Shown piece by piece: positions 265 to 39,771 of a stretch of 64,000 bases of DNA. The stretch comes from Candidatus Dormiibacterota bacterium. Lineage in GTDB: Bacteria > Acidobacteriota > Polarisedimenticolia > Gp22-AA2. A program made the position numbers and the translations under genes. The DNA lies in assembly GCA_035635555.1 (NCBI GenBank), contig DASQAT010000013.1:124001-188000 (forward strand), written 5' to 3'. The notes beneath the pieces were generated by a model. That model was not told the origin of the DNA. It did not search any database and worked only from the letters and a program-made list of their open reading frames with translations. The first letter of the stretch is position 1; each line of letters begins with the position of its first letter.

Positions 265-744
265 GCAGTTCGATCCAGACCGTGACCTACGAGCTTCGCA
301 GATCCGACCTGTCTCAATCCCCCCCTCAAGGGCGCGGCTGGGTACTTCGGCAATGGAGACGCCGTGGAGCCTGAGACGTGGATGGAGCCGGACGGTCTGG
401 GGCTGCTCGACGATCGTATGTTCGTGGCGCGCGCCGTCGGTCGGTCCATGGAGCCCGCCATCCACGACCGAGACTTCGTCGTGTTCCGGAGCAACCCGGT
501 CGGGACGCGCCAGAACAAGATCGTGCTCGCGCAGTACCGGAGGCCGGCTGACCCCGAGACTGGAGGATCCTTCTCGGTGAAGAAGTACTCGTCGGGGAAG
601 CGGCCCGATCCAGAGACGGACTGGCGCCACACCCGAATCATGTTGTCGCCGCTCAACCGCGAGTACCAACCGATCGTGATTCCGGGGAATCAGGCGGAGC
701 ATTTCCAGATCCTCGCAGAGCTTGTGGCCGTGCTCGGAAGATAG
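261..744 (+). pseudogene. S24/LexA-like peptidase-domain protein, frameshifted in a C7 tract
   Basis: The second half (GTG 364 onward, 126 codons) carries an S24-type domain. The motif VGRSMEPAIHDRDFVVF contains the nucleophile Ser (residue 28 from GTG 364), and FSVKKY supplies the candidate general-base Lys (about residue 73). The best start is ATG 261, which overlaps the recombinase stop and reads MSSSIQTVTYELRRSDLSQ. That frame switches to the S24 frame only if one C of the seven-C run at 319-325 is dropped. The joined product would run on as PLKGAAGYFGNGDAVEPE, which matches the entry into S24-like domains found at the C-terminus of some DUF3427-type helicases. As read, the gene is broken. 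A sequencing error in the homopolymer, a real mutation and phase variation are all possible. No helicase domain precedes it here. Confidence 0.6.
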
Positions 745-916
745 GAGACGACCACTGGTGAGCTTCGACCTGCCCAGCGCCATTTTGGACTCGACCACGG
801 CGCAGCGGGTGGCGCGCGCGGCGACGTGTCGATCTACGACCTCCAGCTCCGAAGGACGCCCGGGAGCAGCGATCGGCGGCCCGGTGGGGGCTCGTCATGG
901 AAGGAGTGCATCCTAG
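745..916 (+). other. Short gap with a doubtful small reading frame
   Basis: A GTG at 758 opens a 52-codon frame ending at 916, with AGGAG about 10 bases upstream. I recognise no family in it. A second frame directly after the preceding TAG also stays open through this gap and includes a protein-like stretch (VSIYDLQLRRTP), so this may be eroded coding sequence from an older gene. No promoter is clear. Either call is weak. Confidence 0.2.
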
Positions 917-1519
917 GTGACGTTTCCCGGTCGAGCGGACGAGATCGCGCTCCATGAGCGTGTTCTGGCCGGAGATCCCGTCGCCCCTGTCGATGTCTTC
1001 AAGGCTTGGATGGATCCGCTCGTGAATGCCCTGCGGGCGGATCTTCGTTGTTCAGACGACGAGGCCTACGACAGCGGCATCGATGCCGTGCTTGCGTATC
1101 TGGAGGAGCCCGGGAAGTACGATCGAGGCAAAGGTCGGCTGAGCAGCTATGTGATGGACATCGCAAAGAAAAGAGCCATAGATCGGCTGCGGACTCGCAC
1201 GGCCGCCGAGCGCCGCGATGACGGGTATGCCGCAGCTGTCGACCTTCGCACGATGAATCCGAAGGATGTTCTAGAAGCGGAGGTCGAGGCGAGGGAGCTA
1301 TGGCAGAAGGTCGAAAATGCAGTTCCAGACGAGCGCGACCGGCGGATGCTCAAGCTCATCCTCGAGGGCGAGCGCTCGACGGACGCCTTCGCCGAGGCGC
1401 TCGAACTGGGCGTCCTTTCGCCGCTCGCTCAGCGCCGTTTGGTCAAGCAGCATCGCGACCGGCTGATGAAGGTGCTCGAGCGCCTGGGAACGAGGTTGGG
1501 CCATGACGAAGACGCCTAG
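917..1519 (+). CDS. Sigma-70-like (ECF-type) protein
   Basis: A 200-residue protein with a GTG start. Residues about 30-105 resemble sigma-70 region 2: an acidic helix, then KYDRGKGRLSSYVMDIAKKR and AIDRLR, the pattern used for core RNA polymerase and -10 contact. Residues about 130-195 look like a region-4 helical bundle (VPDERDRRMLKLILEG) but are divergent in the recognition helix. It is the first gene of a plus-strand operon and its 3' end overlaps the next gene by 17 bases. The likely role is a dedicated transcription factor for the downstream defence-type genes; that role is inferred from position. A non-sigma regulatory helix protein is the alternative. Confidence 0.6.
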   Translation: MTFPGRADEIALHERVLAGDPVAPVDVFKAWMDPLVNALRADLRCSDDEAYDSGIDAVLAYLEEPGKYDRGKGRLSSYVMDIAKKRAIDRLRTRTAAERRDDGYAAAVDLRTMNPKDVLEAEVEARELWQKVENAVPDERDRRMLKLILEGERSTDAFAEALELGVLSPLAQRRLVKQHRDRLMKVLERLGTRLGHDEDA

Positions 1520-1865
1520 CTGGCTCGACCACGCGGCGCGCCACAGCAGCGAGCGCCCCTGGACGTTGGGAGCGGTGCTGGAAGAGTACAGCCGCGTGGA
1601 AGGTGTGACGCGCGCGGAGACCGCCTCGTTCCTCGGTTGTGACGTCGATTCACTCGCCTGGCTTTCGCTCTGTCGAAAGCCTGCACCCGATCAGTTTTTG
1701 GAGGACGTCTCGCGGATCGCCGAGCGATTTCAGATCGATGGGCTCAAGCTCGCGCAGCTCATTCGGCGCGTCGATGCCATCGTCGTCCTGCGCCGGACGA
1801 CCACGGCAGAGGAGGAGACGTTGCTCCTTGCAGCGCGCGACCGCGACGAGGAGACGGAAGAGTGA
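1503..1865 (+). CDS. Small helical (HTH-like) accessory protein
   Basis: A 120-residue protein that I cannot assign to a named family. It is predicted all-helical, with the segment VTRAETASFLGCDVDSLAWL resembling a helix-turn-helix of XRE type and a following conserved-looking LSLCRKPAPDQFLEDVSRIA stretch. The C-terminal 20 residues are strongly acidic. It overlaps the sigma-like gene upstream by 17 bases and the metallopeptidase gene downstream by 4 (GTGA), so all three are translationally coupled. In ImmA/IrrE pairs the peptidase usually acts on a neighbouring HTH repressor. This protein is the obvious candidate substrate, or an anti-sigma partner. Both ideas are inference from the arrangement. 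Confidence 0.5.
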   Translation: MTKTPSWLDHAARHSSERPWTLGAVLEEYSRVEGVTRAETASFLGCDVDSLAWLSLCRKPAPDQFLEDVSRIAERFQIDGLKLAQLIRRVDAIVVLRRTTTAEEETLLLAARDRDEETEE

Positions 1866-2614
1866 GCCGCAACTGGCTAGACGAAGCCCTTCGGGCGGCT
1901 GGGCTTCGATCCGAATCCAGCTTCCCGCGGGATCTGATGGCCGACGTTGTGATGCAGCTGCCGGTGTCCATCGTCCCGCTGGCTGGCCTGTCGGCGCACG
2001 CTGTTCGTCGGTGGCTCGGGCAGCGCGGCATTCAGCACGAGGTCAACGACACGGACCGAGCCCTTCACGGATGCCTTGTTGCAAGAGCCGGCCAAGGGAT
2101 CTTGTTCATTAACGCTGGCGACGAGGAGTCGGAGCGCAGGTTCACTCTCGCTCACGAGATCGCCCACTTCATCCTCGATCACCTTCTTCCACGCCTGAAA
2201 GTGCTCAAGGTCTTCGGCAACCACATCCGACCCGTACTCGATGGTGAGCGCCCCCCAACACGCGAGGAGATGCTCTCCGCTGTGCTCGATCGGGTGCGAC
2301 TGGGCGTCCAAGTCCACCTGATGAGCCGGGGAGCCGATGGTGCTGTCTGCGCATGGGATGTCGAAGAGAGCGAGCAGCGCGCAGACCGTTTGGCGCTTGA
2401 GCTGCTGGCACCCGCGCATGCCGCAACAGCAGGTCTACGCCGCGTGATCGGCGAGACTGCGGAGCCGGCAGTGCAGCAGAAGCGCGCCGCTCAGAACCTG
2501 AGCGAGCGCTTCGGCCTTCCCGCCGACGTGGCCGACTCGTATGTACGACTCCTTCTCGATAGGCGGCGACGGCAGCCGTCCCTCAGTGAGGAGATCTTCG
2601 GGGGGAGAAAGTAG
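1862..2614 (+). CDS. ImmA/IrrE-family metallopeptidase
   Basis: A 250-residue protein with a GTG start overlapping the preceding stop. The zinc motif HEIAHFILDH puts His98, Glu99 and His102 in the HExxH arrangement. It is preceded by a beta-rich segment ending GILFINAGDEESERRFTLA, typical of the ImmA/IrrE (COG2856) fold. Members cleave or inactivate HTH repressors in response to DNA damage or mobile-element signals. The protein is longer than minimal ImmA because of an insert and a C-terminal helical region with an SERFGLPADVADSYVRLLL helix. A strong AG-rich site lies between its stop and the next ATG 2 bp away. It probably switches the operon on, through the sigma-like or helical protein. 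Confidence 0.8.
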   Translation: MSRNWLDEALRAAGLRSESSFPRDLMADVVMQLPVSIVPLAGLSAHAVRRWLGQRGIQHEVNDTDRALHGCLVARAGQGILFINAGDEESERRFTLAHEIAHFILDHLLPRLKVLKVFGNHIRPVLDGERPPTREEMLSAVLDRVRLGVQVHLMSRGADGAVCAWDVEESEQRADRLALELLAPAHAATAGLRRVIGETAEPAVQQKRAAQNLSERFGLPADVADSYVRLLLDRRRRQPSLSEEIFGGRK

Positions 2615-2616
2615 GC

Positions 2617-3864
2617 ATGGCGGACCGGCACCCAGAGCCCAGCACGATTGGCGAGCGCGCGCAGGCACGCCCGGTTGCGCCCGCATTGGATGATGAGGAG
2701 CTCGAAGAACTCCTCGGCGACCAGGAGTACGAAACGGCGTTCGGCGAGGACCTTGAGCGGACCCTCGACGTTGATACCTGGGCTACTGGGCTCGACTGGG
2801 AAGGCGCGGTCGCCCGTCTCAAAACCGAGATCCGATCCGCCGTCGAGCGAGAAGATGCCCTACGGCGGCTCGTTCGCGATGAGCTCCTCCCCCGTATTGG
2901 CCAAGCGGCCAATGCGCCACCTGAGGCGGGCGTGTATCGGACAACGGCGGAGGAGATTGCGAAGGTACACGAGGGGCTTCTGTTTCCAGGTCGCGTCGAG
3001 GCGGTCGATGGGACCTCCGCGACCCACGAGACGCTGCCCCTTGGCATCACGCAGATTGGGGTCGCCATAGTCAGCTACGGGGGTGTCTCCGCCACCTTCG
3101 CGCAGCGCGTTTTCAGGAAAGAGATCGCTGGCAAGGCCGCAGACCCCGTGAAGACCGCGATGGAGATCATCGATCGACGCGACGGGCGAGCCGGCGTCGG
3201 ACAGCCCGACGGGATGTCAGAGCTCGCTCGGCGTGGCATCATGACCTACGCTGAGCGCAAGATCCTCATCGACAAGGCCAGTGCTGAGTGGCGACTCGGC
3301 CACGGGGCTCCGATCCCGTACGAGCTGCTCACCGGGTCCGGAAGCATGCGGCTGCTCCAGGCCTCGCTCGCGGTCGTGGCCCGCCTGATCGAGCACGAGC
3401 GGTTCGTGTTCGTGCCGAGTGCCCCCGGAGAGCGAGGGCTGCTCACTCTGGGGAATGCGCTGGCGGCCGGCGAGTTCGCGATCCTGGGCACGATCGAACG
3501 AAGGATCGAAGCGGTCGTCGAACGAGGTCACTACGCCACCAAGAAGCACGACTACAAGGGCGAGGCGATGAGATTCGTGCGGCAGTATGGCCCCGAGGTT
3601 CTGTACGGCCTGTACTGCGCCTCGGAGCAATCACCCCCCTACTTGTTCTACGCCCATCGAAAGCACATCCACATGGCCGCGCGGATCGCCATCGCGGACA
3701 GCATCCTGCGCCCCGCGCGCGGCTTCCCGATGCTGATCGATGTTGCGGATGCCACGTGCAAGAGCGCATTTGGGGCGGCTGGCTTCGTCGGGCTGATTCA
3801 CGATGCGTACAGCCAAGCAGGCGTACCGTTGAAGTACTTCGGCGAGCGTGACACGCGTCGGTAA
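2617..3864 (+). CDS. nurA: NurA-domain nuclease
   Basis: A 415-residue protein with an RNase H-like NurA domain. The first conserved acidic site is at VDGT (Asp131), leading into the strand GVAIVSYGG. A late acidic strand LIDVAD carries Asp375. The first 100 residues are acidic and helical. NurA is the 5'-to-3' exonuclease and endonuclease partner that loads onto HerA hexamers in archaeal end resection. Here the nurA gene lies 15 bp upstream of a herA gene, the usual pairing. It is longer than stand-alone archaeal NurA, as is common for bacterial versions. The C-terminus (LKYFGERDTRR) matches the family's closing strand. Sequence divergence from archaeal NurA is high, so the call leans partly on the HerA neighbour. 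Confidence 0.75.
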   Translation: MADRHPEPSTIGERAQARPVAPALDDEELEELLGDQEYETAFGEDLERTLDVDTWATGLDWEGAVARLKTEIRSAVEREDALRRLVRDELLPRIGQAANAPPEAGVYRTTAEEIAKVHEGLLFPGRVEAVDGTSATHETLPLGITQIGVAIVSYGGVSATFAQRVFRKEIAGKAADPVKTAMEIIDRRDGRAGVGQPDGMSELARRGIMTYAERKILIDKASAEWRLGHGAPIPYELLTGSGSMRLLQASLAVVARLIEHERFVFVPSAPGERGLLTLGNALAAGEFAILGTIERRIEAVVERGHYATKKHDYKGEAMRFVRQYGPEVLYGLYCASEQSPPYLFYAHRKHIHMAARIAIADSILRPARGFPMLIDVADATCKSAFGAAGFVGLIHDAYSQAGVPLKYFGERDTRR

Positions 3865-3879
3865 GGGAGGAACATCGAG

Positions 3880-5841
3880 ATGGAAACCAGGAACACCGAT
3901 GGAGCCGAAGCCGTGAAGCCGGGAGCTGCCGATTTTCTGAAGCCGGCTCCCCCGGACGTACTCGCCGAGCTCGACGAGGTCGCTGCCGTCGGGCGTGCAC
4001 GGCTTGCTTCGCTGGATCCGGAACTCGCGGACGCCGTGGGGTTCACGCACTTCGACACCTCGTCGAGCGAGGACAATCTCCTCACGGTGCTCTTGACCCG
4101 TGACGACCTAAACCGCCTCGCGTCCCAGACGCTCGTGCGGATCAAGTCGCGCGATGACAAGCGCTCCTACTTGGGGGTGGTCGTGAGAGGTCCGTTCTCG
4201 GAGCCCGATGCTGTGGCGCCCAACTCGACCATGGCCGTGGGCGTCATCGTGCAGGGCAAGAAGGTTCAGTACACGTTCGACTACCACGGGCGCGCCGAGG
4301 TGGAGATCCTCGGCGAGGAGAGCGGAGACAACCTCGTGCCGCCACGTTACCGGCCGCGGCCGAAGAGTCCCGTCTACGTCATCGACGAGGAGGAGAGCGC
4401 TCGCATCCTCGGGGTGGGCGGCGACCTCTGCCTCGGGCAGGTCGTCGGCTACCAGAGCATGGAGGCGAGGATCCCGTCGAAGGAGAAGTCGGTGCTACCG
4501 CGCCACACGGCCGTCATCGGCACGACGGGCGGCGGTAAATCGACGACGGTCGCGTCGCTCATCCACCGTGCGCAGGAGAGCGAGATCGCGACCGTCGTGT
4601 TCGACGTGGAGGGCGAGTACACGCACATTGACGAGCCGACCGACCACGCCCCAATGCTCGACGCGCTCAGGGGACGTGGGCTCAAGCCGCAGGGTGTGCG
4701 CGAGCTGCACATCCTCCACCTGACGGGGCGTGAGACTACGAACCCCACGCACAAGAACCGTCACCCGTTCGCCTTGAAGTTCTCAAGCCTCTCGCCGTAC
4801 GCGATCGCTGAGATCTTGGAGATGTCCGACGCCCAGCAGGAGCGATTCCTGCGCGCCTACGACGTGACAAAACTACTCCTCGGTGACTTCCGCATCTTCC
4901 CGTCGAGCGATGCCGAGGCCCGCGAGGCCCTCGAGGTGGACGAGCTGACGACAGGCTACCCTCGGATGACCATCCATCACATCCTCGACGTGGTGAGCGC
5001 ATATATCCATAGCCTCAGTGACGGGGGCAAGGCCGAGGCGAAGGGCGAATCAAAGGGGGGCGGCCCACGTCGGAGCGGCTCGGCCATGGAGGCCCTCGGC
5101 GCTGAGAGCGAGGAAGATGCCACGGCGGCCAGCAGCCTCCAGCTCTTCAGCGAGTTCAAGACGAATCCGTCGAAGGTGCGCCAGCGAGTCGCCGTGCAGC
5201 CCAGCAAGAGCGAGATCAGCTGGAAGGCCCTGGCGGGCAAACTCCACCGGTTACGGCGGCTGGGCATCTTCGACGCCCGCAACGTCGCCGGCGTTGAATA
5301 CGCCGCGATGCTGACGTCCGGACGCGTGTCTGTGATCGACCTCTCGGACACAGACTCCCCGCAGCTCAACAACCTCGTGATCGCGGACATTCTGCGCGGT
5401 CTCCAGGATGCGCAGGAGGAGCGCTACAAGAAGGCGGCCGCGGCCGGGACACGCGTCGTGCCGACGCTGATCATCATCGAGGAGGCGCACGAGTTCCTAT
5501 CGGCCAACCGAATCGCGCAGATGCCCGTGCTCTTCCAGCAGGTGGCCAGGATCGCCAAGCGTGGTCGCAAACGGTGGCTCGGCTTGGTCTTCGTCACGCA
5601 GCTGCCGCAGCACCTGCCCAACGAGGTGCTCGGCCTGGTCAACAACTTCATCATCCACAAGATCACCGACAGCATGGTCATCAGCCGCATGCAGAGGACG
5701 GTCGGGAGCATTGATCAGAGCCTCTGGAACCGGGTCCCTCGCCTCGCACCGGGGCAGGCGCTCGTCTCTTTCGCGAGCTTCGCGCGCCCGCTCATGGTCG
5801 CGATCGACCCCGCGCCGTGCAAGCGTCTGCTGGTGGAGTAG
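3880..5841 (+). CDS. herA: HerA-like hexameric DNA translocase/ATPase
   Basis: A 653-residue protein of the FtsK-HerA superfamily (DUF87). An N-terminal HAS-barrel-like beta region (about residues 30-190) precedes Walker A GTTGGGKSTT (residues 214-223, Lys220). Next comes the DVEGEYTHI strand, then Walker B with LIIIEEAHEFL (Glu534/Glu535). The C-terminal block RIAKRGRKRWLGLVFVTQLP is the usual arginine-finger and sensor region, and the protein ends with the family's closing helix. It would form a hexamer that pumps DNA into the NurA nuclease. A clear GGAGG site precedes the ATG. Residues about 370-430 form a charged low-complexity insert (GGKAEAKGESKGGG). The next gene starts 3 bases after its stop. 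Confidence 0.9.
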   Translation: METRNTDGAEAVKPGAADFLKPAPPDVLAELDEVAAVGRARLASLDPELADAVGFTHFDTSSSEDNLLTVLLTRDDLNRLASQTLVRIKSRDDKRSYLGVVVRGPFSEPDAVAPNSTMAVGVIVQGKKVQYTFDYHGRAEVEILGEESGDNLVPPRYRPRPKSPVYVIDEEESARILGVGGDLCLGQVVGYQSMEARIPSKEKSVLPRHTAVIGTTGGGKSTTVASLIHRAQESEIATVVFDVEGEYTHIDEPTDHAPMLDALRGRGLKPQGVRELHILHLTGRETTNPTHKNRHPFALKFSSLSPYAIAEILEMSDAQQERFLRAYDVTKLLLGDFRIFPSSDAEAREALEVDELTTGYPRMTIHHILDVVSAYIHSLSDGGKAEAKGESKGGGPRRSGSAMEALGAESEEDATAASSLQLFSEFKTNPSKVRQRVAVQPSKSEISWKALAGKLHRLRRLGIFDARNVAGVEYAAMLTSGRVSVIDLSDTDSPQLNNLVIADILRGLQDAQEERYKKAAAAGTRVVPTLIIIEEAHEFLSANRIAQMPVLFQQVARIAKRGRKRWLGLVFVTQLPQHLPNEVLGLVNNFIIHKITDSMVISRMQRTVGSIDQSLWNRVPRLAPGQALVSFASFARPLMVAIDPAPCKRLLVE

Positions 5842-5844
5842 GTA

Positions 5845-8421
5845 GTGGACGCCGCTCTCAACACCAAGACCGCGTTTGTCGACCTTCCTGACCTTCCTTT
5901 CATCAGCGCAGGGAAGGAGACCGGCAAGATCCAGGTCCGCATCAGCTATCGCATTATCGAGCTCTTCTCGGAGGGCCTTTACTCCAGCCCGAATAAGGCA
6001 GTCGAGGAGCTCGTCTCGAATGCCTTCGACGCCGGCGCGACGAAAGTCCACGTGATTCTTTCCCCCGACCGTACCGTTCCTGACGCCGTTATCGCAGTGA
6101 TCGATGACGGTACGGGAATGCAGCCCGACGACCTGCGCCGGCACTGGCTGATCGGCGTGAGCAACAAGCGGGAGCTCAAGAAGCCACCCAAAGGGCGAAA
6201 GCAGATCGGCAAGTTCGGGATCGGGAAGCTCGCGACCTTCGTGCTCTCGAGCCACCTGACCCACGTCTGTAAGGTCGATGGGAAGTTCTTCGCGACAACG
6301 ATGAACTACTCACAGATCCCTCAGGGGCAGGGCAGAGGAATCCACGCCGAGGACATCGTCGAGTTGCCGCTGCGCGAGCTCACCGATGCGGAAGCGAAGG
6401 CGGCGCTGTCGCCGATCATCCAGGGCTCGAAGCTCGGCTACCGAGCTATCAAGCTTTTCGGCAAGGGGGCCGCGCCGACGTGGACCGTCGCCATCATGTC
6501 GGGCCTGAAGGACATGGCGCGAGAGATCAAAAAGGGCCGCCTGTCGTGGGTGCTCCGAACAGCGATGCCGCTCCGCGACGATTTCAAGCTGTACCTCGAC
6601 GGCGACGAGCAGGCGCCGTCGAAGGCGGCGACACCCCCACTCAAGAAGTGGGTCCTCGGGAAGGATCTCAAGAGTTTACCCAAGCCCGCCCCAGAGGACC
6701 TCGAGGTCACGGTCGCCAAGAAGGTCCCACCCGAGCAGCACTACGGCCTCACGCACCCAAAGCTCGGTCGCATAACGGGATACGCGGAGGTTTACGAGGG
6801 GCTTCTCACTGAAGGCAAGTCGTCCGAGATCGATCGCAGCCACGGCTACTTCGTCTACGTCTGCGGAAGGCTCATCAACCTCGGCGACGAGCTATTCGGC
6901 ATGGAAGCGCTGCGGCACGGGACGTTCGCGCGCTTCCGGATGGTCGTCCACATCGACAGACTGGACGATGAGCTCCGCTCGTCACGAGAGGCCCTCCGCG
7001 AAGGAACGCTCGTTAACGTCGCTCGGAACATTCTCCACGCGGTGTTCAACCATGCCCGGAAGTGGCTCGAGGAACACGACGCCAAGCAGGCGCCAGGCAG
7101 GCGCGCCACGGGGCAGATTGCCGATAGCCCGTGGAGTCTCACGCGTCGCCCCCTCATTGGGCTTCTCGCCGCGGCACTCGAGGGGAAGGTCGCGCCCCGC
7201 TACCTCAGGTATCCCACCAACCTCGGCAAGCCAGCGAGGCAGAAGCTGCTCGAGGTGCTTCAGCAACGAGCCGAGAGCGACGAAGGCCTCGTTCTCAAGA
7301 CGGAGCTGGCGGAACTGTCTCAGGATCAGGGGTTCGCCGTCCTCGACATCGAAAGTGGGACACTCCAGATCAACACCTTGCATCCGTTCGTTGCCGCGCA
7401 CCGGGAAGATTATGAACGCGGGAGAGAGACTCTGGGCTTGCTCGCGATGGCAGAGGTCCTCACCGAAGCTCATCTCCACGAAGTTGGCGTCGGACCAAGC
7501 ATAGTGGCCGAGGTCATGAGCCGGCGTGATGAAATGCTCAGGCATTTCGCGCGATCTATGAAGCGCACTGCTTACATCGTCGCGCAGGCCGTCGAAGATG
7601 CCAGCACTGACGAGAACAAGCTCGAAGAAGAACTCGTCGCGGCGTTTGACAGCATTGGCTTCAATGCCGTGCGCATAGGTGGAAACGGGAAGCCCGATGG
7701 CAAGGCCGAGGCACCACTGGGTGCGGGAGGCGGCGGCAAGGAACGACGCTACGCGGTTTCCCTCGAAGCCAAGAGCAAGGAGATGCTCGGGAAGAAGGTG
7801 TCCGCAAAGACCGTGGGCGTTTCGACGGTGGCGCTTCACCGGGACGAGTACGGCTGCGACCACGCCATAGTTGTCGGTCCAGACTTTCCGACTGGCGAAG
7901 GCGAAGGCGCTTCGCTTGTGAAACAGCTGAAGGCGGACAGAGCGAAGACCGGCAAGACGATCACCGTCGTCAAGACCGTAGACCTGGCCCGTCTCGTTCG
8001 CCTCGTGCCTGTCAAAGGCGTTGGCCTCGACCGGCTTCGGGATCTCTTCCAGAACTGCGCAACCCCAGAAGAGGCCAAGAAGTGGATCGACGGCCTGCTG
8101 GCCGAAAAACCGAGCAAGCCGCCGTACAACGCGATTCTCGACACGATTTGGGCTCTCCAAGACGACGTTCCCGCGGAGGCCGTCGAATTCGCCGCCGTCA
8201 CCACCGCCCTACGGAAGGACAAGCAGATCGAGATCAAGAAGGCGGAACTCATCGATCTCTGCAGGGCCATGTCTAGGATGAACCCCCACGTGGTAGTTCG
8301 CGACAATACGGTGGAGCTGACTCAACGCCCAGACCGCATCCTGGAGGCGGCCGGTGCCGTGCTTCGCCAGTTTCCTGAAGAGGAGCAGAAGAGCACCATC
8401 TTCAAGGCGGTCAAGAAATGA
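5845..8421 (+). CDS. GHKL (Hsp90/MutL/MORC-type) ATPase fused to a PD-(D/E)XK nuclease
   Basis: An 858-residue protein with a GTG start. The N-terminal GHKL fold has an N-box at residues 54-64 (EELVSNAFDAG), the DDGTGM lid motif at 87-92 and GKFGIGKLA at 122-130; all three ATP-binding motifs are intact. The middle third (about 200-560) has no motif I recognise and probably acts as transducer and coiled region. Near residue 611 a restriction-endonuclease-like core begins: GKPDG (Asp618) and SLEAKSK (Glu641, Lys643) give the D...ExK triad of an Mrr-type nuclease. MORC/MutL-type GHKL proteins in prokaryotic R-M-like operons are established. Here the ATPase clamp and nuclease are joined in one chain beside HerA-NurA. 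Its stop lies 5 bp from that of the opposing methylase. Confidence 0.85.
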   Translation: MDAALNTKTAFVDLPDLPFISAGKETGKIQVRISYRIIELFSEGLYSSPNKAVEELVSNAFDAGATKVHVILSPDRTVPDAVIAVIDDGTGMQPDDLRRHWLIGVSNKRELKKPPKGRKQIGKFGIGKLATFVLSSHLTHVCKVDGKFFATTMNYSQIPQGQGRGIHAEDIVELPLRELTDAEAKAALSPIIQGSKLGYRAIKLFGKGAAPTWTVAIMSGLKDMAREIKKGRLSWVLRTAMPLRDDFKLYLDGDEQAPSKAATPPLKKWVLGKDLKSLPKPAPEDLEVTVAKKVPPEQHYGLTHPKLGRITGYAEVYEGLLTEGKSSEIDRSHGYFVYVCGRLINLGDELFGMEALRHGTFARFRMVVHIDRLDDELRSSREALREGTLVNVARNILHAVFNHARKWLEEHDAKQAPGRRATGQIADSPWSLTRRPLIGLLAAALEGKVAPRYLRYPTNLGKPARQKLLEVLQQRAESDEGLVLKTELAELSQDQGFAVLDIESGTLQINTLHPFVAAHREDYERGRETLGLLAMAEVLTEAHLHEVGVGPSIVAEVMSRRDEMLRHFARSMKRTAYIVAQAVEDASTDENKLEEELVAAFDSIGFNAVRIGGNGKPDGKAEAPLGAGGGGKERRYAVSLEAKSKEMLGKKVSAKTVGVSTVALHRDEYGCDHAIVVGPDFPTGEGEGASLVKQLKADRAKTGKTITVVKTVDLARLVRLVPVKGVGLDRLRDLFQNCATPEEAKKWIDGLLAEKPSKPPYNAILDTIWALQDDVPAEAVEFAAVTTALRKDKQIEIKKAELIDLCRAMSRMNPHVVVRDNTVELTQRPDRILEAAGAVLRQFPEEEQKSTIFKAVKK

Positions 8422-8426
8422 CGCTT

Positions 8427-9650
8427 CTACGGCTTGACGAGATCGAGAAGAACTTCGGTCCGCAGCCTGTTCTGAAGCATTCGCCCCGAGCCGCGCGAGG
8501 ATGGCGGCGGCAGGTACCTGCGGTTGGGAGGAAGCTTTCTGCGGCGCTGCCGCGCGATCTCAAAGCCATGACGCTCGCCAAGGCAGGTCAACGCGCCCGA
8601 GTTGCGAACGTACACGCCCCGCATCGTGCAGTCGCCCACGACCAAAACTGCACGCCCGCCTCGTACGAGAACCCGGCGCAACTCGCCCATCATCTTGTCC
8701 ATGTCGGCCACGTATCGCCCCAGCAACTTCTTCTGACGGAGAGAAAGACGATCGAGATCGCCCATGCGGCCCATCGCTCGGTTGATCATAGTGTCTTCAA
8801 TATCGGCACCCGCAGAGACCTCGGTTCCGATGTTCGCGGCCCTGACCCGGCGAAGGGCACCTACCGCGTGTCCCATCCACACGAGCGAGAACTTGTGACC
8901 ACGAAGGTAGTCGATGGCGTTGAGGTAAGGCGGGGACGAGACCACAACATCGATCGTTGAAGCCTCCAGTGGAAGGCTCCGCGCGTCAGCCATTTTTACA
9001 ATCGCGCGCGAGCCGACTTTTTCGACCGCGTTGAACGGCGTGGCGGCAAGTACAACTCGCACAGCCCGCAAGAAGTGGTCGAGGGGGCGGATGACGCTCT
9101 TGCCCAAAACCTTGTGCGGGCGGCTGTGCGCCACATCGAGCGCTAGAGAGGCACCGGCCTGCTTCGTGATGATCATCCGCGAGAACGCGCACCAGAGAAC
9201 GTCCCGGAGCGGTTTGGTCGGGACGTCGGAGATCGCTTGTGCGAGAGCGGCGAGCTGGCGGCGGTTGGTCTCGTCGAACCAGTACCGGACGAACGCGCGA
9301 GTCTCTTCGTCGGCGCCGGCGGGATATGCATCCCGAAGCGACAGGCGGGGTGCCCGCTGCTTTGCGACGTCGTGCGCTCGCTCAGCCATGCGGAGGGTCG
9401 ATGACTCGTTCGTGTCCCCGCACCAGACCCGAGCCAGCAGAACCGCGAGGGGATCTGTGTCGAAGCCGATCGATTCGTGCCCGAGAGTTCGGGCGACCAC
9501 GAGGGTAGTACCCGACCCAGCCATCGGGTCGAGAACGCGAAGGGGTCGGCCGCTCGACCGGCGGAGTTCGTTCCAGGGGATGGATGCTGCCATCCTCGCG
9601 GGGAAGGGATGAATCGGGCGGGGGATCATTCCTCTGGTCTGCATCTGCAC
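8427..9650 (-). CDS. Site-specific DNA methyltransferase (SPPY type)
   Basis: A 407-residue DNA methylase. Near the N-terminus HPFPARM is followed by the AdoMet-binding motif DPMAGSGTTL (motif I). The catalytic motif is SPPYLNAIDY (motif IV) around residue 245, so the order is that of beta-class amino-methyltransferases. SPPY favours N4-cytosine, though some N6-adenine enzymes also carry it. Start options are GTG 9650, ATG 9644 (10 bases after an AGGAAAAG site) and ATG 9629. It is on the opposite strand to the HerA/NurA/GHKL operon and ends 5 bp from it, so it is transcribed independently and could be made first, as expected for a protective methylase. No target-recognition domain stands out; specificity may reside in residues 90-220. 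Confidence 0.8.
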   Translation of the reverse strand: MQMQTRGMIPRPIHPFPARMAASIPWNELRRSSGRPLRVLDPMAGSGTTLVVARTLGHESIGFDTDPLAVLLARVWCGDTNESSTLRMAERAHDVAKQRAPRLSLRDAYPAGADEETRAFVRYWFDETNRRQLAALAQAISDVPTKPLRDVLWCAFSRMIITKQAGASLALDVAHSRPHKVLGKSVIRPLDHFLRAVRVVLAATPFNAVEKVGSRAIVKMADARSLPLEASTIDVVVSSPPYLNAIDYLRGHKFSLVWMGHAVGALRRVRAANIGTEVSAGADIEDTMINRAMGRMGDLDRLSLRQKKLLGRYVADMDKMMGELRRVLVRGGRAVLVVGDCTMRGVYVRNSGALTCLGERHGFEIARQRRRKLPPNRRYLPPPSSRGSGRMLQNRLRTEVLLDLVKP

Positions 9651-10885: not shown

Positions 10886-12130
10886 TCAGTCCATCTGCTT
10901 CCTCAGGAACGTGGGCACGTCGAGCTCGTCCTGAAGCGACGCGTAGCCGGTGACCGCCCCCGCGTCGGCTGTGCGGGCGGTCGCCTGCGGGACGGGCGGG
11001 CGCCTGAGGAAGGTCGGCGAGTCGAGATCGCGCCCCGGGCGCGCCTGGGCGTCGGTCGCCATGGGGCGCGGGGAGTAGCCGCGCTGCGCCGCGGCCGTCG
11101 CCGCCGCGACCTGGACCTCGGCGGCCTGGCGGCCGTCGCGGTTGAAGCCGGTGGCGATCACGGTGATCTTCACTTCGTCGGTCATCGCCTTGTCGATCAC
11201 CGTCCCGAAGATGATGTTCGCCTCGGGGTCGGCGGTGCGCTGCACCAGGCTCGAGGCCTCGGCCACCTCGTGCAGGGTCATGTCGGTGCCGCCGGTGATG
11301 TTGATCAGGATGCCGCGTGCGCCGTCGATGGTCGCGTCTTCGAGAAGCGGCGACGAGATGGCGCGCTGCGCCGCCTCGATGGCGCGGTTCGGTCCGGAGG
11401 CCACGCCGGTCCCCATGAGCGCCATCCCCATGCCGCTCATGATCGTCTTGACGTCGGCGAAGTCGAGGTTGATCTCGCCCGGGATGGTGATGAGGTCGGA
11501 GATCCCCTGCACCGCCTGGCGCAGGACGTCGTCGGCGAACAGGAACGCGGCGCCGAGCGGCATCGCCTTGTCGACCGAGTTCAGGAGCTTCTCGTTCGGG
11601 ATGCAGATGACGGTGTCGACCGCCTCCTGCAGCTCGTGCAGCCCCTGGTCCGCCTGGTCGCGGCGCTTCTTCCCCTCGAAGCCGAACGGCTTGGTGACGA
11701 CGGCGACCACGAGCGCCCCCAGCTCCGAGGACAGGCTGGCGATGATCGGGACGGCGCCGGTGCCGGTGCCGCCGCCCAGGCCCGAGGTGATGAACACCAT
11801 GTCGGCCCCCTGCATCGCCTCGATGATCTTCTCCGAGTCCTCGAGAGCCGCCTGGCGCCCGATGTCGGGGTTGCTGCCGGCCCCCAGCCCCTTGGTGAGC
11901 TTGGCGCCGATCTGGATCTTCAGCGGGGCGCGCGAGCCCTTCAGCGCCTGGCAGTCGGTGTTGGCGACCATGAACTCCACCCCCTGCAGGTTGGTGGAGA
12001 TCATGCGGTTGACGGCGTTGCTGCCGCCTCCGCCCACTCCGATTACCTTGATGTTGGCTCCGACGGCCTTGTTCTCGTCGAAGGACAGCCTCAACGCGGC
12101 CTTCGAGTGCTTGTCGTCCATCAGGATCAT
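10886..12130 (-). CDS. ftsZ: Cell division GTPase FtsZ
   Basis: 414 residues from ATG 12130, chosen because GAGGAG lies 6-7 bases upstream; an upstream-extended frame only reads through ftsA. The tubulin signature GGGTGTG and the N-terminal [16 protein letters not shown] nucleotide loop are intact, as is the NLDFADV T7-loop region. The protein polymerises into the Z-ring and binds FtsA. The C-terminal conserved peptide appears twice: [11 protein letters not shown], then about 25 residues later [12 protein letters not shown] at the extreme end. A single copy is usual. An Ala-rich spacer precedes both. ftsA ends 11 bp upstream and the diguanylate cyclase begins 1 bp downstream. Confidence 0.97.
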
Positions 12131-12141
12131 GCGGGTCTCCT

Positions 12142-13377
12142 CTAAAAGAGTTCGCTCAGCCAGCCTCTCACCATGTCGCCCATGCGGGAGAGGACGAAGG
12201 GATGGTGCAGTTTCTGCGGGACGCTCTGGCGCCGCCGCGCGCCGTACAGGGTCAGTCCGACCACCGTGCTGTGCTGCGGCGTCGCGACGGTGTCGGAGAT
12301 GCCGCCGAGACCGGACGGCGAGCCGCGCCGCACCGGCACGTTCAGGCAGCGCTCGGCCATCTCCTGGATCCCCTCCAGCATCGAGCCCCCACCCGTCAGG
12401 ACGACACCGGCGTGGATCGAGCGGTCGAAGTTGCTGCGCGCGAACTCCTCGGCGATGAGCGCGAAGATCTCCTCGACGCGCGGCTGGATGATCTCGCACA
12501 GGAGAGTGCGCGACAGCACGCGCGGCTTGCGGCCGCCGACGATCGGCACCTCGATCGTGTCCTCGTCCCCGACCAGAGAGGCGAGGGCGCAGCCCCGGTT
12601 CTTCTTGAGCCTCTCGGCCTCGGGGATCGGGGTGCGCAGGCCCACCGCGATGTCGTTGGTGACGTGCTCGCCGCCCGTCGGCAGCGCGGCGATGTGGCGG
12701 ATGGCGCCGCGCTCGAAGATCACCAGATCGCTGGTGCCGGCGCCGATGTCGATGAGCGCCACCCCCATCTCCTTCTCGTCGGGGGTCAGCACGGCATCGG
12801 CCGCGGCGAGCTGCTCGAGCACGACCTCTTCAACTTCGACGCCGGCGCGGTTGACGCTGTTGACCAGGTTCTGCGCGGCGGTGACCGAGGCGGTCACGAT
12901 GTGCACGTTCGCCTGCAGCTTGGAGCCGGTCATGCCGGCCGGGTCGTGGATGCCGTCCTGGTCGTCGACCATGAACTCCTGCGGCAACACGTGGAAGATC
13001 TCGCGCTCGGGCGGGATGTTCACGGCGCGCGCGGCGGCCAGGACGCGCTGCACGTCGTCGCGCGTGACCTCGTGGTCCCGTCCGGAGATGGCGACGACTC
13101 CGCGGCTGTTCAGCCCGCGGACGTGCGCCCCGGCGACGCCGACGAAGGCCCGGTCCACGGAGCAGCCGGCCATGAGCTCCGCCTCCTCCACCGCCTGCTT
13201 GATCGAAGAGACGCAGGCGTCGAGGTTCACCACGACCCCCTTGCGCATTCCGCGCGAGGGGGCCGAGCCGAAGCCGACGATGTCGATGGCGCCCGCGTCC
13301 CGGGGCTCGGCGATCAGGACGCAGACCTTGGTCTGGCCGATGTCCAGTCCCACGAGGTGGGTGCTGGGTCGTGGCAT
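12142..13377 (-). CDS. ftsA: Cell division actin-like protein FtsA
   Basis: 411 residues. The actin-fold phosphate loops [10 protein letters not shown] (about residue 8) and [14 protein letters not shown] are present, along with the adenosine motif [13 protein letters not shown]. The 1C domain lies between them. The last residues, [14 protein letters not shown], form an amphipathic membrane-targeting helix. FtsA tethers FtsZ filaments to the inner membrane and recruits later division proteins. The length is normal for the family. Its ATG follows the ftsQ stop by 1 base and ftsZ starts 11 bases after its stop. That gives the conserved ftsQ-ftsA-ftsZ order with near-contiguous translation. Confidence 0.96.
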
Positions 13378-13378
13378 G

Positions 13379-14239
13379 TCAGTCTCCCTTCACGGCGACA
13401 CGAGGTCGGAACGCGATGCGGTCCCGGAACCTCAGATCGACGTACGCGCCGTCGCCGAAGTCCGTGGCGAGGTAGTCGCGCAGCGTCAGATAGCGGTCGA
13501 GATTCGCTCCAAAATCGCTCGGATTGAGGCGCACCGACGGCCCCCCCTGGTTCAGCCGCAGCTCCAGGCGGTCGTCGCGCGACAGGTCGATCTCCGAGAT
13601 GTTCTTCGCCAGGTCCCGCTGGTTCTCCTGCAGCCAGGCGACGAGCCGGACACCGCGCTGCATCTGCGCGCGCGCGCGGGCGGCGTTCCGGTCGTCCAGA
13701 CCGACGAGAATCGGCCAGGAGTAGTCCTTCGTCTGGCCGCCGAAGGGATCGATGGCGACCCCCTCGTCGTCCACCAGCCACACCCGGTCGCGCAGCAGGG
13801 CGAGCCCTCCCGGCGCGCGCTCCTCGATGGCGCAGAAAATACCGTCGGGCAGGACGCGCTTGACGACGGCCCGCTTCACCCAGCGCCGCGCCTCGAGGTC
13901 CCGCCCCAGCCGCGCCGGATCCAGCCGGAACAGGTTCCGGCCCATGGCCCGCGACAGCGATCGGCGCAGCTCCCCCTCCGGCGCGTAGCGCGTCTCGGAG
14001 AACTCGATCCGCCGGAGCCGGAAGCGCTGGGAGTGGGTCAGGTAGTGCCGAGCGCCGTACGCCGACCCGCCGAGGAGCGCCGTGCCGAGGACCAGGGCCG
14101 TGAGGACGGCTCCGCCAAGGCCGCGGCGGCGCTTGCGGAGAGCGCCGCTCCGGTCGCGTCGGAGGATGCGCAGCGGCTCGGTGTCGGCGCCGGCGCGCGT
14201 CGCGTCGATCGATCCCGTGGCGGGACGAAGGCGCTTCAT
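13379..14239 (-). CDS. ftsQ: Cell division protein FtsQ/DivIB
   Basis: 286 residues with a basic cytoplasmic tail (1-40), one membrane span (about 41-62), a POTRA domain beginning near RRIEFSETRY (residue 76) and a beta domain to the end. The POTRA segment contains the typical NLFRLDPARLGRDLEARRWV region and the following KRVLPDGIFCAIEER strand. It belongs to the FtsQ-FtsL-FtsB subcomplex that activates septal synthesis. The ATG overlaps the murB stop (ATGA at 14236-14239). The N-terminal tail is longer and more Arg-rich than in E. coli but normal for high-GC Gram-negatives. Confidence 0.9.
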   Translation of the reverse strand: MKRLRPATGSIDATRAGADTEPLRILRRDRSGALRKRRRGLGGAVLTALVLGTALLGGSAYGARHYLTHSQRFRLRRIEFSETRYAPEGELRRSLSRAMGRNLFRLDPARLGRDLEARRWVKRAVVKRVLPDGIFCAIEERAPGGLALLRDRVWLVDDEGVAIDPFGGQTKDYSWPILVGLDDRNAARARAQMQRGVRLVAWLQENQRDLAKNISEIDLSRDDRLELRLNQGGPSVRLNPSDFGANLDRYLTLRDYLATDFGDGAYVDLRFRDRIAFRPRVAVKGD

Positions 14240-15177
14240 CTCCAGACGATCACCTCCGTCTCGAGCGTGATGCCGGTCTTCTTGCTCACTTCGTCGCGCA
14301 CCCTGTCGATGAGGAGGAGGACGTCCCGGAACGTGGCCCCGCCCCGGTTGACGATGAAGTTGGCGTGCACGTCCGAGACGACGGCACGGCCGACGGCCGT
14401 CCCCTTCAGGCCGCTCTGGTCGATGAGACGCCCGGCGTGCCCCTCCTCCGGGTTCTTGAAGATGCAGCCGGCGTTCTTCGCACCGGTCGGCTGGGTCGAC
14501 ACACGGTGGTCGTGGTAGGCGCGCATCCGCTCGCGCACGCGCGCCGGGTCGTCGGGGAGGAGATGCAGGGTCGCGGCGGCGATGAAGCGGTCGCCGACTC
14601 CCGGGCTGCGGCGGTAGGCGAACGTTCCCGCTCCGGCCGCCAGCTCTTCGATACGCCCCTGGCGGGTGATCGCCGTGAGCGAGGCCACGGCGTTGCCGAA
14701 CATCCCCTCGTGCCAGCCGGCGTTCATGCGCACGCAGCCGCCGACGCTCCCGGGGATCCCCTCGGCGAACTCGATCCCGGACAGACCGGCAGCGGCCGCC
14801 CGCTTGACCAGGCGCGGCACCGGGTAGCCGGCGCCCGCCAGGACCTTGTCACCCTCGATGCCCGGCTCCTCCTGGAGCGACTCCGACGAGATCACCACGA
14901 ACGACGGCCCCTCGTCCGCCACCAGGAGGTTCGAGCCGGCGCCCAGGAAATCGAACGGCACCCCGGCCTGGAACAGACGCTCCATCACGGGCGCCAGCTC
15001 CTCCGGCCGGGCCGGCGCCAGCAGGAGAGGCGCCTCGCCGCCGACTCCGAGCGACGTGCGTGTCCTGAGCGGCACGTCGCGCAGCACGCGCACGGGCGAC
15101 TCCCTGAGGATCGCCTCCGCCTCCGTCATCCAGTGCTTCACGGCCGTCATCGGCATCGTTCCCGGGCCTGCGCTCAT
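14236..15177 (-). CDS. murB: UDP-N-acetylenolpyruvoylglucosamine reductase MurB
   Basis: 313 residues from ATG 15177, which shares its A with the murC stop (TGATG). The frame stays open further upstream, but only as a shadow of murC. An FAD-binding region begins with RTRTSLGVGGEAPLLL and has the DFLGAGSNLLVADEG loop. The substrate domain contains FAEGIPGSVGGCVRMNAGWHE and later GCIFKNPE with the catalytic Glu near the end. The type I MurB pattern is evident: reduction of UDP-GlcNAc-enolpyruvate with NADPH to UDP-MurNAc. Internal ATGs at 15156 and 15150 are weaker start options. Confidence 0.94.
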   Translation of the reverse strand: MSAGPGTMPMTAVKHWMTEAEAILRESPVRVLRDVPLRTRTSLGVGGEAPLLLAPARPEELAPVMERLFQAGVPFDFLGAGSNLLVADEGPSFVVISSESLQEEPGIEGDKVLAGAGYPVPRLVKRAAAAGLSGIEFAEGIPGSVGGCVRMNAGWHEGMFGNAVASLTAITRQGRIEELAAGAGTFAYRRSPGVGDRFIAAATLHLLPDDPARVRERMRAYHDHRVSTQPTGAKNAGCIFKNPEEGHAGRLIDQSGLKGTAVGRAVVSDVHANFIVNRGGATFRDVLLLIDRVRDEVSKKTGITLETEVIVWR

Positions 15178-16553
15178 CACTTCCGCAAGTGCCTGACGAA
15201 CTCCTCGCCGGCCTTGTAGACGCTGCCGGCGCCCATCGTGATCACCATGTCCCCCTCGCGCGCGCGCTCCTTGAGCCAGTCCGGCACATCCTTCAGGCTC
15301 TTCACGAGCGTCACGTCCTTGTGGCCGTGGGTCTTGATCGCCTGCGCCACCGCCTCGACCGTGACGCCGGGGATCGGAGCCTCGCCGGCCGGGTAGATGT
15401 CGCACACCGCCAGGACGTCGGCGTCGTAGAAGGCGCGCGCGAACTCGTTCAGGAGCGCCTGCACGCGCGTGAAGCGGTGCGGCTGGAACACGACCACGGT
15501 GCGCCGGCCGAACCCCTTCTTGGCGGCCGCGAGGGTCGCCAGGATCTCCGAGGGGTGGTGCCCGTAGTCGTCGATGACCATGATCCCGCCGTGCTCCCCC
15601 TTCAGCTGGAAGCGGCGGTCGGCGCCGCTGAAGCGCGAGAGCTCGGCGGCAATCGTCTCGAACGGCACCTCGAGGTCGAGACCGCAGGCGATCGCCGCCA
15701 GCGAGTTGGCGATGCTGTGGCGCCCCGGCACGCGCAGCGTGATCCCCCCGATCTTCTTCCCCTGCAGCAGCACCGTGTACGCCGCCTTGAATCCCTGGAG
15801 CTCGATGTCGGACGCCGACAGGTCGGCCTGCGCCGTGAACCCGTAGGTCACGACGCGCCGCGACAGGCGGGGCAGGATCTCCTGCACGCGCGTGTCGTCG
15901 AGGCAGACGACGCCGACGCCGTAGAACGGCACCTTGTTCAGGAAATCGGCGAAGGCGGTCTGCAGACGCGACAGGTCGCCGTAATGGTCGAGGTGCTCGG
16001 CGTCGATGTTGGTCACCACGGCGATGGTCGGCGTGAGGCGCAGGAACGACCCGTCGCTCTCGTCCGCCTCGGCGACCAGCAGGTCGCCGCGCCCGAGCTT
16101 GGCGTTGCTGCCGAGGACGTTGAGCCGCCCGCCGATGATGATCGTCGGGTCGAGGCCGGCGCCCGACAGCACCTGCGCCACCATCGACGTGGTCGTGGTC
16201 TTGCCGTGCGAGCCGGCGATGGCGATGCCGTACTTGATCCGCATCAGCTCGGCCAGCATCTCGGCGCGCGGGATCACCGGGATCTGCCTGCGGCGCGCCT
16301 CCAGCACCTCCGGGTTGTCAGGTTTCACGGCCGAGGAGATGACGACGACGTCCGCGTCCCCGACGTTCAAGGCCGCGTGACCGCGGGTGATCCGGCCGCC
16401 CAGGGCCCTCAGCCCTTTGACCGTGGCCCCTTCCTCGAGGTCGCTCCCCGTCACCTGGTAGCCGAGGTTGATCAGGACCTCGGCGATGCCGCTCATGCCG
16501 ATCCCTCCGATCCCGACGAAATGGATGCGGCGCGTCTTGCGGAGCATCACCAT
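15177..16553 (-). CDS. murC: UDP-N-acetylmuramate-L-alanine ligase MurC
   Basis: 458 residues. The N-terminal Rossmann motif [17 protein letters not shown] and the ATP loop [10 protein letters not shown] identify MurC, as does [10 protein letters not shown]. It adds L-Ala to UDP-MurNAc in the cytoplasm. It overlaps murG by 7 bases if ATG 16553 is used. The second ATG at 16547 gives a one-base TGATG overlap like three other junctions of this cluster and may be the true start. The length is normal. It is followed directly by murB through another TGATG. Confidence 0.96.
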
Positions 16554-35639: not shown

Positions 35640-35641
35640 AC

Positions 35642-37615: not shown

Positions 37616-37623
37616 GAACCGGA

Positions 37624-37651
37624 TTGACAGTGTATGTGCTGCGAGTAGAAT
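37624..37651 (+). promoter_or_regulatory. Sigma-70 promoter for the Cys-less DUF3857 genes
   Basis: TTGACA (37624-37629), 16 bases, TAGAAT (37646-37651). Initiation near 37658 would leave a leader of about 42 bases carrying GAAGGAGG before the ATG at 37700. This is among the best promoters in the window. It lies in the 84-bp divergent gap; no equally good promoter is seen for the minus-strand gene. Confidence 0.7.
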
Positions 37652-37699
37652 ACCAGCAAACTTCTGTTCTGAATAGTCCCGAGATCGAAGGAGGCATCA

Positions 37700-39745: not shown

Positions 39746-39771
39746 AGTCCCTTCGCGAGCAGGGAGGAACC

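What the first reader, a model, noticed from the sequence alone, without database searches (positions are those of the whole stretch)
917..9650. Candidate undescribed defence system: sigma-like + helical protein + ImmA/IrrE + NurA + HerA + GHKL-nuclease, with a convergent SPPY methylase
Six plus-strand genes with overlaps or gaps of 17 bases or less end 5 bp from a DNA methylase on the other strand. HerA-NurA is an established end-resection pair, HerA occurs in several known anti-phage systems, and MORC/MutL-type GHKL ATPases occur in R-M-like operons. Here a clamp-like ATPase with its own nuclease, a translocase-nuclease pair, a methylase for self-marking and a three-gene regulatory front end are combined. 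I cannot map this set to a named system. The flanking recombinase tail and decayed ImmA/IrrE fragment fit a mobile defence island.
Basis: partly seen in the sequence, partly recalled or inferred. Interest (0 to 1): 0.88.

Follow-up and report, generated by a model that had tools for sequence, protein, structure and literature searches.

The report
Composite two-nuclease restriction-modification island
This stretch is a mobile anti-invader gene cluster in which one DNA-marking enzyme appears to be shared by two different DNA-destroying machines: a widespread clamp-like restriction nuclease, and a previously uncatalogued, stress-controlled HerA-NurA translocase-nuclease system that we also find in other bacteria and on two phage-like contigs.

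Summary
Seven intact genes lie at 917-9650 as described, in a 61-65% GC tract against about 69-70% downstream. But they are two modules.

Module B is sigma-like, XRE-like HTH, ImmA/IrrE, NurA and HerA plus a methylase. Its gene order is kept without GHKL in Acidobacteriota, Chloroflexota and two phage contigs. The NurA model's best PDB hits are NurA. All 17 ImmA members match PADLOC CapP, the protease of CapH-CapP immune-operon controllers. Four loci adjoin CRISPR-cas genes.

Module A is a GHKL ATPase with a PD-(D/E)xK site (D618/K643 invariant in 32 sequences) plus the same methylase family, in 37 of 54 GHKL loci. It is a restriction-modification pair.

Only the window and a Myxococcota relative carry both modules with one methylase. 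That methylase belongs to the GHKL-partner lineage.

Best reading: a composite R-M-like island with one N4C-type methylase and two effectors, a CapP-like switch controlling NurA-HerA. It is not in the libraries or open papers searched. Main rival: DNA donation, as in the Thermus ICETh1 NurA-TdtA-methylase operon. No phenotype is shown.

The parts
917..1519 (+). Sigma-70-like protein (200 aa); Sigma70_r2 plus a region-4-like C-terminus by eye; first gene of the control cassette
   Evidence: 12 of 17 family members hit Sigma70_r2
1503..1865 (+). Small XRE-like HTH protein (120 aa), proposed CapH-like substrate of the ImmA protease
   Evidence: HTH_31 E=1e-4 in the L008 homologue; no hit for the window copy itself
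1862..2614 (+). ImmA/IrrE (CapP-like) metallopeptidase, HEIAH intact
   Evidence: 17 of 17 members hit PADLOC capP
2617..3864 (+). NurA-fold nuclease
   Evidence: Foldseek best hits 2ygk NurA E=1.3e-5, 3tai NurA E=4.6e-4, 9x1m HerA-NurA E=1.1e-3
3880..5841 (+). HerA-family hexameric translocase, Walker A/B intact
5845..8421 (+). GHKL (paraMORC-like) ATPase with C-terminal PD-(D/E)xK nuclease (D618, E641, K643); probable restriction endonuclease
   Evidence: paired with a methylase of the same family in 37 of 54 loci
8427..9650 (-). Alpha-class SPPY (N4-cytosine-type) DNA methyltransferase, of the GHKL-partner lineage, convergent
   Evidence: distant kin of M.DraR1
331..747 (+). Remnant: Peptidase_S24 end of a Res-type helicase-S24 gene that is intact in L008/L158; the sacsin/NOV gene next to it in L008 is missing here. 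Associated debris, not part of the working set

Best explanation
The locus is a composite, laterally moved restriction-modification-like island. Shown by comparison: it joins two modules that otherwise live apart. Module B is a methylase + sigma-like + XRE-HTH + CapP-like ImmA protease + NurA + HerA system. Module A is a GHKL-PD-(D/E)xK nuclease + methylase pair. Only one methylase, of module A's lineage, is present for both. Inferred mechanism: (1) the methylase (N4-cytosine type) marks host DNA; (2) the GHKL-nuclease is the restriction enzyme, an ATP-gated clamp that cuts unmarked invader DNA; (3) HerA (hexamer) and NurA form a translocase-nuclease that feeds on DNA ends, either phage ends or ends made by the GHKL enzyme, and degrades both strands, as the T. 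kodakarensis complex does; (4) the sigma-HTH-ImmA cassette keeps the dangerous nucleases low and raises them when infection or DNA damage produces ssDNA: ImmA cleaves the HTH repressor (CapP/CapH, PprI/DdrO logic) and the sigma-like protein drives the operon. Steps 1-3 rest on family knowledge. Step 4 rests on the CapP match and precedent.
For: Module B order is kept in loci of Acidobacteriota, Chloroflexota, Myxococcota and two phage contigs, in all but the window and L008 without GHKL. The NurA family and this ImmA subfamily co-occur in 11 of 11 NurA-bearing genomes among 181 Chloroflexota genomes (Fisher p about 1e-16). NurA fold. capP match in 17 of 17. Module A: same-family methylase next to GHKL in 37 of 54 loci, C5 methylases in other GHKL loci; nuclease and ATPase residues invariant in 32 sequences. 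The window/L008 methylase sits with GHKL-partner methylases (99/96); grouping it with module-B methylases is rejected (p-AU 9e-63). Module-B loci adjoin CRISPR-cas genes (L078, L101, L106, L111) or type I R-M genes (L081). 81.9% DNA identity over 7.5 kb to a different phylum and a GC dip mean transfer. HerA-NurA degrades both dsDNA strands (PMC12977600); CapP is an ssDNA-activated protease of immune operons (PMC13373217); PprI is activated by ssDNA (PMC10904395).
Against: No phage or plasmid phenotype, methylome or protease assay exists. Sharing of one methylase by both effectors is inferred from there being only one nearby and from one lateral lineage (window + L008, effectively one event). 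The sigma-like protein might be structural or targeting rather than transcriptional; no consensus promoter was found upstream and no shared operator was seen. L111 has no methylase nearby and L112 lacks methylase and control genes, so the methylase may not be strictly required. A similar NurA-TdtA-methylase operon in Thermus works in DNA donation (PMC5365140).
Confidence: 0.6

Rival explanations
1. Two independent defence systems that ended up side by side: the GHKL-nuclease + methylase is a complete R-M pair, and sigma-HTH-ImmA-NurA-HerA acts on its own, without using the methylase (for example by degrading any free DNA ends after damage-type induction).
For: Each module occurs without the other. 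L111 has NurA-HerA and the control trio without a methylase in view; L112 has NurA-HerA alone. The methylase lineage follows GHKL, not HerA.
Against: Module B nearly always carries a methylase of this same family, in upstream, divergent or convergent position, and methylase lineages have been exchanged while one was retained (compare the trees). In the window and L008 module B kept no second methylase.
Confidence: 0.2
2. A DNA-donation machine: NurA and HerA process and pump chromosomal DNA to other cells, with the nuclease providing cuts and the methylase modulating them, as in the Thermus thermophilus ICETh1 operon (TthHB27I restriction enzyme, NurA-like, TdtA, 410-aa N4/N6 methylase).
For: Gene content is strikingly parallel: restriction enzyme + NurA + HerA/FtsK + methylase of about 410 aa on a mobile, lower-GC element. 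The TdtA, NurA and restriction-enzyme genes are needed for donation (PMC5365140, PMC7767461).
Against: No CapP-like control cassette is described there. Module B sits beside CRISPR-cas and on phage contigs. No secretion or competence genes were identified in the ORFs shown around module B (only selected neighbours were profile-searched). Homology of TdtA, TTC1878 and TTC1880 to these proteins could not be tested because no Thermus chromosome was reachable.
Confidence: 0.12
3. A damage-induced DNA repair/resection operon (HerA-NurA end resection under ImmA/IrrE control) with a passenger methylase.
For: HerA-NurA was first described with Mre11-Rad50 in archaeal repair, and ImmA/IrrE proteins regulate damage responses (PMC10904395).
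Against: No mre11 or rad50 seen nearby; patchy distribution (0 of 249, 1 of 189, 0 of 199, 5 of 162, 11 of 181 genomes); lateral transfer; defence-island and phage context; recurrent methylase. The T. kodakarensis complex cannot make 3' overhangs (PMC12977600).
Confidence: 0.06

Closest known systems
Thermus thermophilus ICETh1 operon TthHB27I-NurA(TTC1878)-TdtA-methylase(TTC1880), PMC5365140, PMC7767461
   Same: Restriction enzyme, NurA-like nuclease, HerA/FtsK translocase and a 410-aa N4/N6 methylase in one operon on a mobile element
   Different: Restriction enzyme is a fused type IIG enzyme, not GHKL; no sigma-HTH-ImmA cassette described; shown role is DNA donation. Sequence homology not testable here
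paraMORC3-type GHKL + RE-fold nuclease R-M systems (Iyer, Abhiman and Aravind 2008, PMC2292703); BbrUII/HgiDII family NF050001
   Same: GHKL ATPase with C-terminal RE-fold nuclease, found with DNA methylases
   Different: Window protein matches NF050001 only at residues 32-160, far below cut-off (66.9 vs 550 bits); partner methylase here is the SPPY alpha-class type
CapH-CapP control cassettes of CBASS and other immune operons (PMC13373217); PprI-DdrO (PMC10904395)
   Same: Adjacent HTH protein and ImmA/IrrE protease at the head of an immune-like operon; all 17 ImmA members hit the PADLOC capP model
   Different: A sigma-like gene is added in the operons seen; cleavage and ssDNA activation untested
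HerA-nuclease defence systems (HerA-Sir2, HerA-DUF4297) and HerA/FtsK capture systems (PMC11291478, PMC10853773)
   Same: HerA-family translocase coupled to a nuclease, in anti-invader loci
   Different: Here the nuclease is NurA, with a methylase and CapP-like control; NurA and GHKL are not mentioned in PMC10853773, and its only 'irre' match is the word 'irrefutably'
Archaeal HerA-NurA complex (2ygk, 3tai, 9x1l-n; PMC12977600)
   Same: Same protein folds and gene pairing
   Different: Archaeal complex linked to mre11-rad50 or CRISPR, not to a methylase-sigma-HTH-ImmA operon
M.DraR1 (Deinococcus radiodurans pCP1, DR_C0020), PMC6712171
   Same: Alpha-class MTase with motif I first and SPPY last; distant homologue (24% over residues 39-275)
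   Different: Different partner (GIY-YIG R.DraR1) and far in sequence

Membership tests
GHKL-nuclease R-M pair (paraMORC3-like) | N-terminal GHKL ATPase with intact ATP-binding motifs | tested here: met
   HATPase_c_3 E=1.3e-21; N59, D87, G89, G122, G125, G127 invariant in 32 homologues
GHKL-nuclease R-M pair (paraMORC3-like) | C-terminal RE-fold nuclease with D...ExK | tested here: met
   D618 and K643 invariant, E641 nearly so; fold itself not modelled
GHKL-nuclease R-M pair (paraMORC3-like) | Conserved neighbouring DNA methylase | tested here: met
   same-family methylase within 3.5 kb in 37 of 54 loci
GHKL-nuclease R-M pair (paraMORC3-like) | Clusters with the published paraMORC3 family by sequence | not tested
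   no published paraMORC3 sequence was compared
HerA-NurA complex | HerA AAA+ translocase with Walker A/B | tested here: met
HerA-NurA complex | NurA fold | tested here: met
   Foldseek top hits NurA; TM-scores only 0.41/0.52 and no Pfam NurA match
HerA-NurA complex | Physical complex and dsDNA degradation | not testable with these tools
   needs biochemistry
CapH-CapP control cassette | ImmA/IrrE protease of the CapP family | tested here: met
   capP model hit by 17 of 17 members, window E=3.8e-11 over residues 48-108
CapH-CapP control cassette | Adjacent CapH-type HTH repressor | tested here: inconclusive
   XRE-like HTH hits in 3 of 17 members; no PADLOC match for the window copy
CapH-CapP control cassette | ssDNA-activated cleavage of the repressor | not testable with these tools
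   needs biochemistry
Catalogued PADLOC or NCBIfam defence system | System-level models for these genes | tested here: not met
   sigma, HTH and NurA proteins have no PADLOC hit; HerA hits generic HerA models; NCBIfam HerA_antiphage 70 bits against a cut-off of 800
ICETh1 TdtA transjugation operon | restriction enzyme + NurA + HerA/FtsK + about 410-aa N4/N6 methylase, co-oriented | tested here: inconclusive
   gene content parallel; sequences unavailable; the methylase is convergent here

The most novel reading that the evidence does not exclude
HerA-NurA with an N4-cytosine-type methylase and a sigma-HTH-CapP cassette is an undescribed class of restriction-modification system whose effector is an induced hexameric translocase-exonuclease. 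Effectors are interchangeable on one methylase family, so GHKL-nuclease and HerA-NurA can share a single methylase, as in the window.
Probability: 0.4. Interest if true: 0.8.

Novelty: new variant of a known kind. Interest (0 to 1): 0.65.

Why it matters
HerA-NurA was long read as a repair machine; recent work suggests defence, without a clear bacterial case. Here is a defined bacterial gene set that ties HerA-NurA to self-marking and to a CapP-like damage switch, in several loci beside CRISPR-cas. It makes the question 'is HerA-NurA an anti-phage restriction effector, and is it methylation-gated?' directly testable. The window and L008 are natural hybrids that test whether two different nucleases can share one methylase.

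Tried and rejected
Seven genes as one conserved system: rejected, only the window and L008 have it. Rare to this genome: rejected. Spread on sequenced plasmids or phages: NurA had no match in those collections; the phage evidence comes from IMG/VR only. A first NurA model from 5 sequences was useless (pLDDT 46.6) and was replaced by the 19-sequence model. Pfam NurA (PF09376) found no match in this genome or 40 relatives while ringing in 7 control genomes, so these NurAs escape that model. Sequence search of PDB with the NurA profile gave nothing useful. Conserved operator or promoter: none found in short upstream regions. MADS system paper search gave none. The 'decayed ImmA' reading was replaced by S24.
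Full report
OBSERVATION. The tract is 61-65% GC, against about 69-70% in the region after it. The window lies at G000:C13:124001-188000 of a 4.28-Mb genome. G147, described as 'same phylum', has a contig of the same length (118,771) that bears the same GHKL-methylase genes as the Holophagales record behind L026, so the host is most likely Acidobacteriota.

PROTEIN IDENTITIES. HerA, ImmA (Peptidase_M78), GHKL (HATPase_c_3) and the N6_N4 methylase are clear Pfam matches. The sigma-like protein is marginal alone, but 12 of 17 homologues hit Sigma70_r2. The small protein has no hit, but homologues hit XRE-like HTH families weakly. NurA has no Pfam match. A model from 19 homologues (mean pLDDT 75.5) has Sulfolobus NurA (2ygk, E=1.3e-5), another solved NurA (3tai, E=4.6e-4) and the T. 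kodakarensis HerA-NurA complex (9x1m, E=1.1e-3) as best PDB matches. TM-scores are 0.41/0.52 for 2ygk, so it is a divergent NurA.

MODULE A. A scan of GTDB genome contigs with a GHKL alignment gave 54 loci in many phyla and in haloarchaea. Thirty-seven have a methylase of the window's family within 3.5 kb; four others end at contig edges. Some of the remaining, more distant GHKLs sit beside C5-cytosine methylases, and L014 also has a Vsr gene. In 32 aligned GHKLs the ATPase motifs and D618/K643 are invariant, and E641 nearly so: a PD-(D/E)xK restriction-type site. Apart from L008, none of these loci has NurA or HerA of this type, nor do the 40 other parent genomes searched with the NurA profile. 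This fits the paraMORC3 description, GHKL-S5 plus RE-fold nuclease in R-M contexts (PMC2292703).

MODULE B. HerA and NurA searches found relatives without GHKL: L078, then more in the same class (5 of 162 genomes) and in the phylum of the Caldilineaceae genome G412, Chloroflexota (11 of 181); 0 of 249 in the phylum of a gammaproteobacterial MAG, 0 of 199 in that of a planctomycete MAG, and only L008's own genome among 189 of its phylum. Across 20 loci the order sigma-HTH-ImmA-NurA-HerA is invariant wherever the genes are present. A methylase of the same broad family lies upstream, divergent, or convergent downstream. Exceptions: L079 looks decayed, L111 shows no methylase, L112 shows only NurA-HerA; in L113 the HTH position is filled by a very divergent ORF; L107 and L129 are cut by contig ends. 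Two phage contigs (L081, L129) carry the set with the methylase convergent, as in the window, next to endolysin or tail genes. L078, L101, L106 and L111 lie beside CRISPR-cas genes, and L081 beside type I restriction genes. In 181 Chloroflexota genomes this ImmA subfamily is found in all 11 NurA genomes and strongly in one other, where the ImmA gene sits at a contig end. So the control trio is dedicated to NurA-HerA.

COMPOSITE. The window and L008 (Myxococcota) are 81.9% identical in DNA over 7.5 kb plus the methylase. This is recent transfer between phyla of a locus holding both modules and one methylase. In the methylase tree, window/L008 group with a GHKL-partner methylase (L042; 99/96). 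Module-B methylases fall in three or more separate places, and the L129 module-B methylase lies inside a GHKL-partner clade. Holding window/L008 with the main module-B clade is rejected (p-AU 9e-63). The HerA+NurA tree has a different shape: L106 groups with L103 and L107-L110, and L129 with L081. Module B has therefore exchanged methylases within one broad family several times, and the window is one such exchange in which the GHKL gene came too or stayed.

METHYLASE CHEMISTRY. Motif I (DPMAGSGT) precedes SPPY, the alpha-class order. A distant homologue on D. radiodurans pCP1 matches the location of M.DraR1 (DR_C0020, small plasmid), a proven alpha-class N4-cytosine methylase (PMC6712171). N4C is inferred, not shown.

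MECHANISM. Methylase marks self; GHKL-nuclease cuts unmarked DNA; HerA-NurA degrades from ends. The T. kodakarensis complex degrades both strands of dsDNA and its authors suggest defence (PMC12977600). The sigma-HTH-ImmA trio would be a CapH/CapP-type switch: capP is matched by 17 of 17 members, CapP is an ssDNA-activated protease of immune operons (PMC13373217), and ssDNA activates PprI (PMC10904395). In Thermus ICETh1 a restriction enzyme, NurA-like protein, TdtA and a 410-aa methylase form one operon; the first three are needed for DNA donation (PMC5365140, PMC7767461). That is the nearest known gene set and the main functional rival.

NOVELTY. No PADLOC (2023) or NCBIfam (2026) system model covers sigma, HTH or NurA here, and HerA is far below NCBIfam anti-phage cut-offs. 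Open-access searches found no methylase-sigma-HTH-ImmA-NurA-HerA system. Subscription papers and preprints were not searchable, so prior description cannot be excluded.

LIMITS. All functional steps are inferred. The composite is one lateral lineage. The frequency figures come from samples, not censuses. The GHKL fold and the HTH and sigma folds were not modelled.

Noticed in passing
L158 4456-13280 and L008 1738-5070: In the L008 genome a separate co-oriented set (UvrD-PDDEXK helicase, Mod-like methylase, Res helicase ending in Peptidase_S24, sacsin/NOV-C protein) ends just before the sigma gene; the window keeps only the S24 end.
   Followed up: partly
window 331-747: Peptidase_S24 fragment, 82% DNA identity to the S24 end of the L008 Res gene; the sacsin gene between it and the sigma gene is missing in the window.
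   Followed up: yes
L078, L101, L106, L111: Module B lies next to CRISPR-cas genes (cas3, cas8a1, cas7 and fused cas4-cas1 in L078; cas3 in L101 and L111; cas1 in L106).
   Followed up: partly
L081, L129: Two IMG/VR contigs with endolysin or tail genes carry module B with a convergent methylase, as in the window: probably a prophage cargo defence module.
   Followed up: partly
L108 reverse-complement about 5850-5900: Perfect 18-bp palindrome ATCAAGCGATCGCTTGAT just after a TATAAT-like box upstream of the methylase; degenerate versions in L109 and L110. Possible HTH operator.
   Followed up: no
L014 1270-4614: A second GHKL gene with a C5-type methylase and a Vsr endonuclease, upstream of the first GHKL-methylase pair in the same contig.
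   Followed up: no
window 35000-41000: A second GC dip (about 0.60) in a 0.69-0.70 background; possible further island, not examined.
   Followed up: no
window 10886-16553: Right after the island lie minus-strand genes that by eye look like ftsZ, ftsA, ftsQ, murB and murC (a dcw cluster).
   Followed up: no
G1261 contig C52 20613-21344 (L122): In this genome the CapP-like ImmA gene is on a different contig from NurA-HerA (L112): a second or split copy.
   Followed up: no
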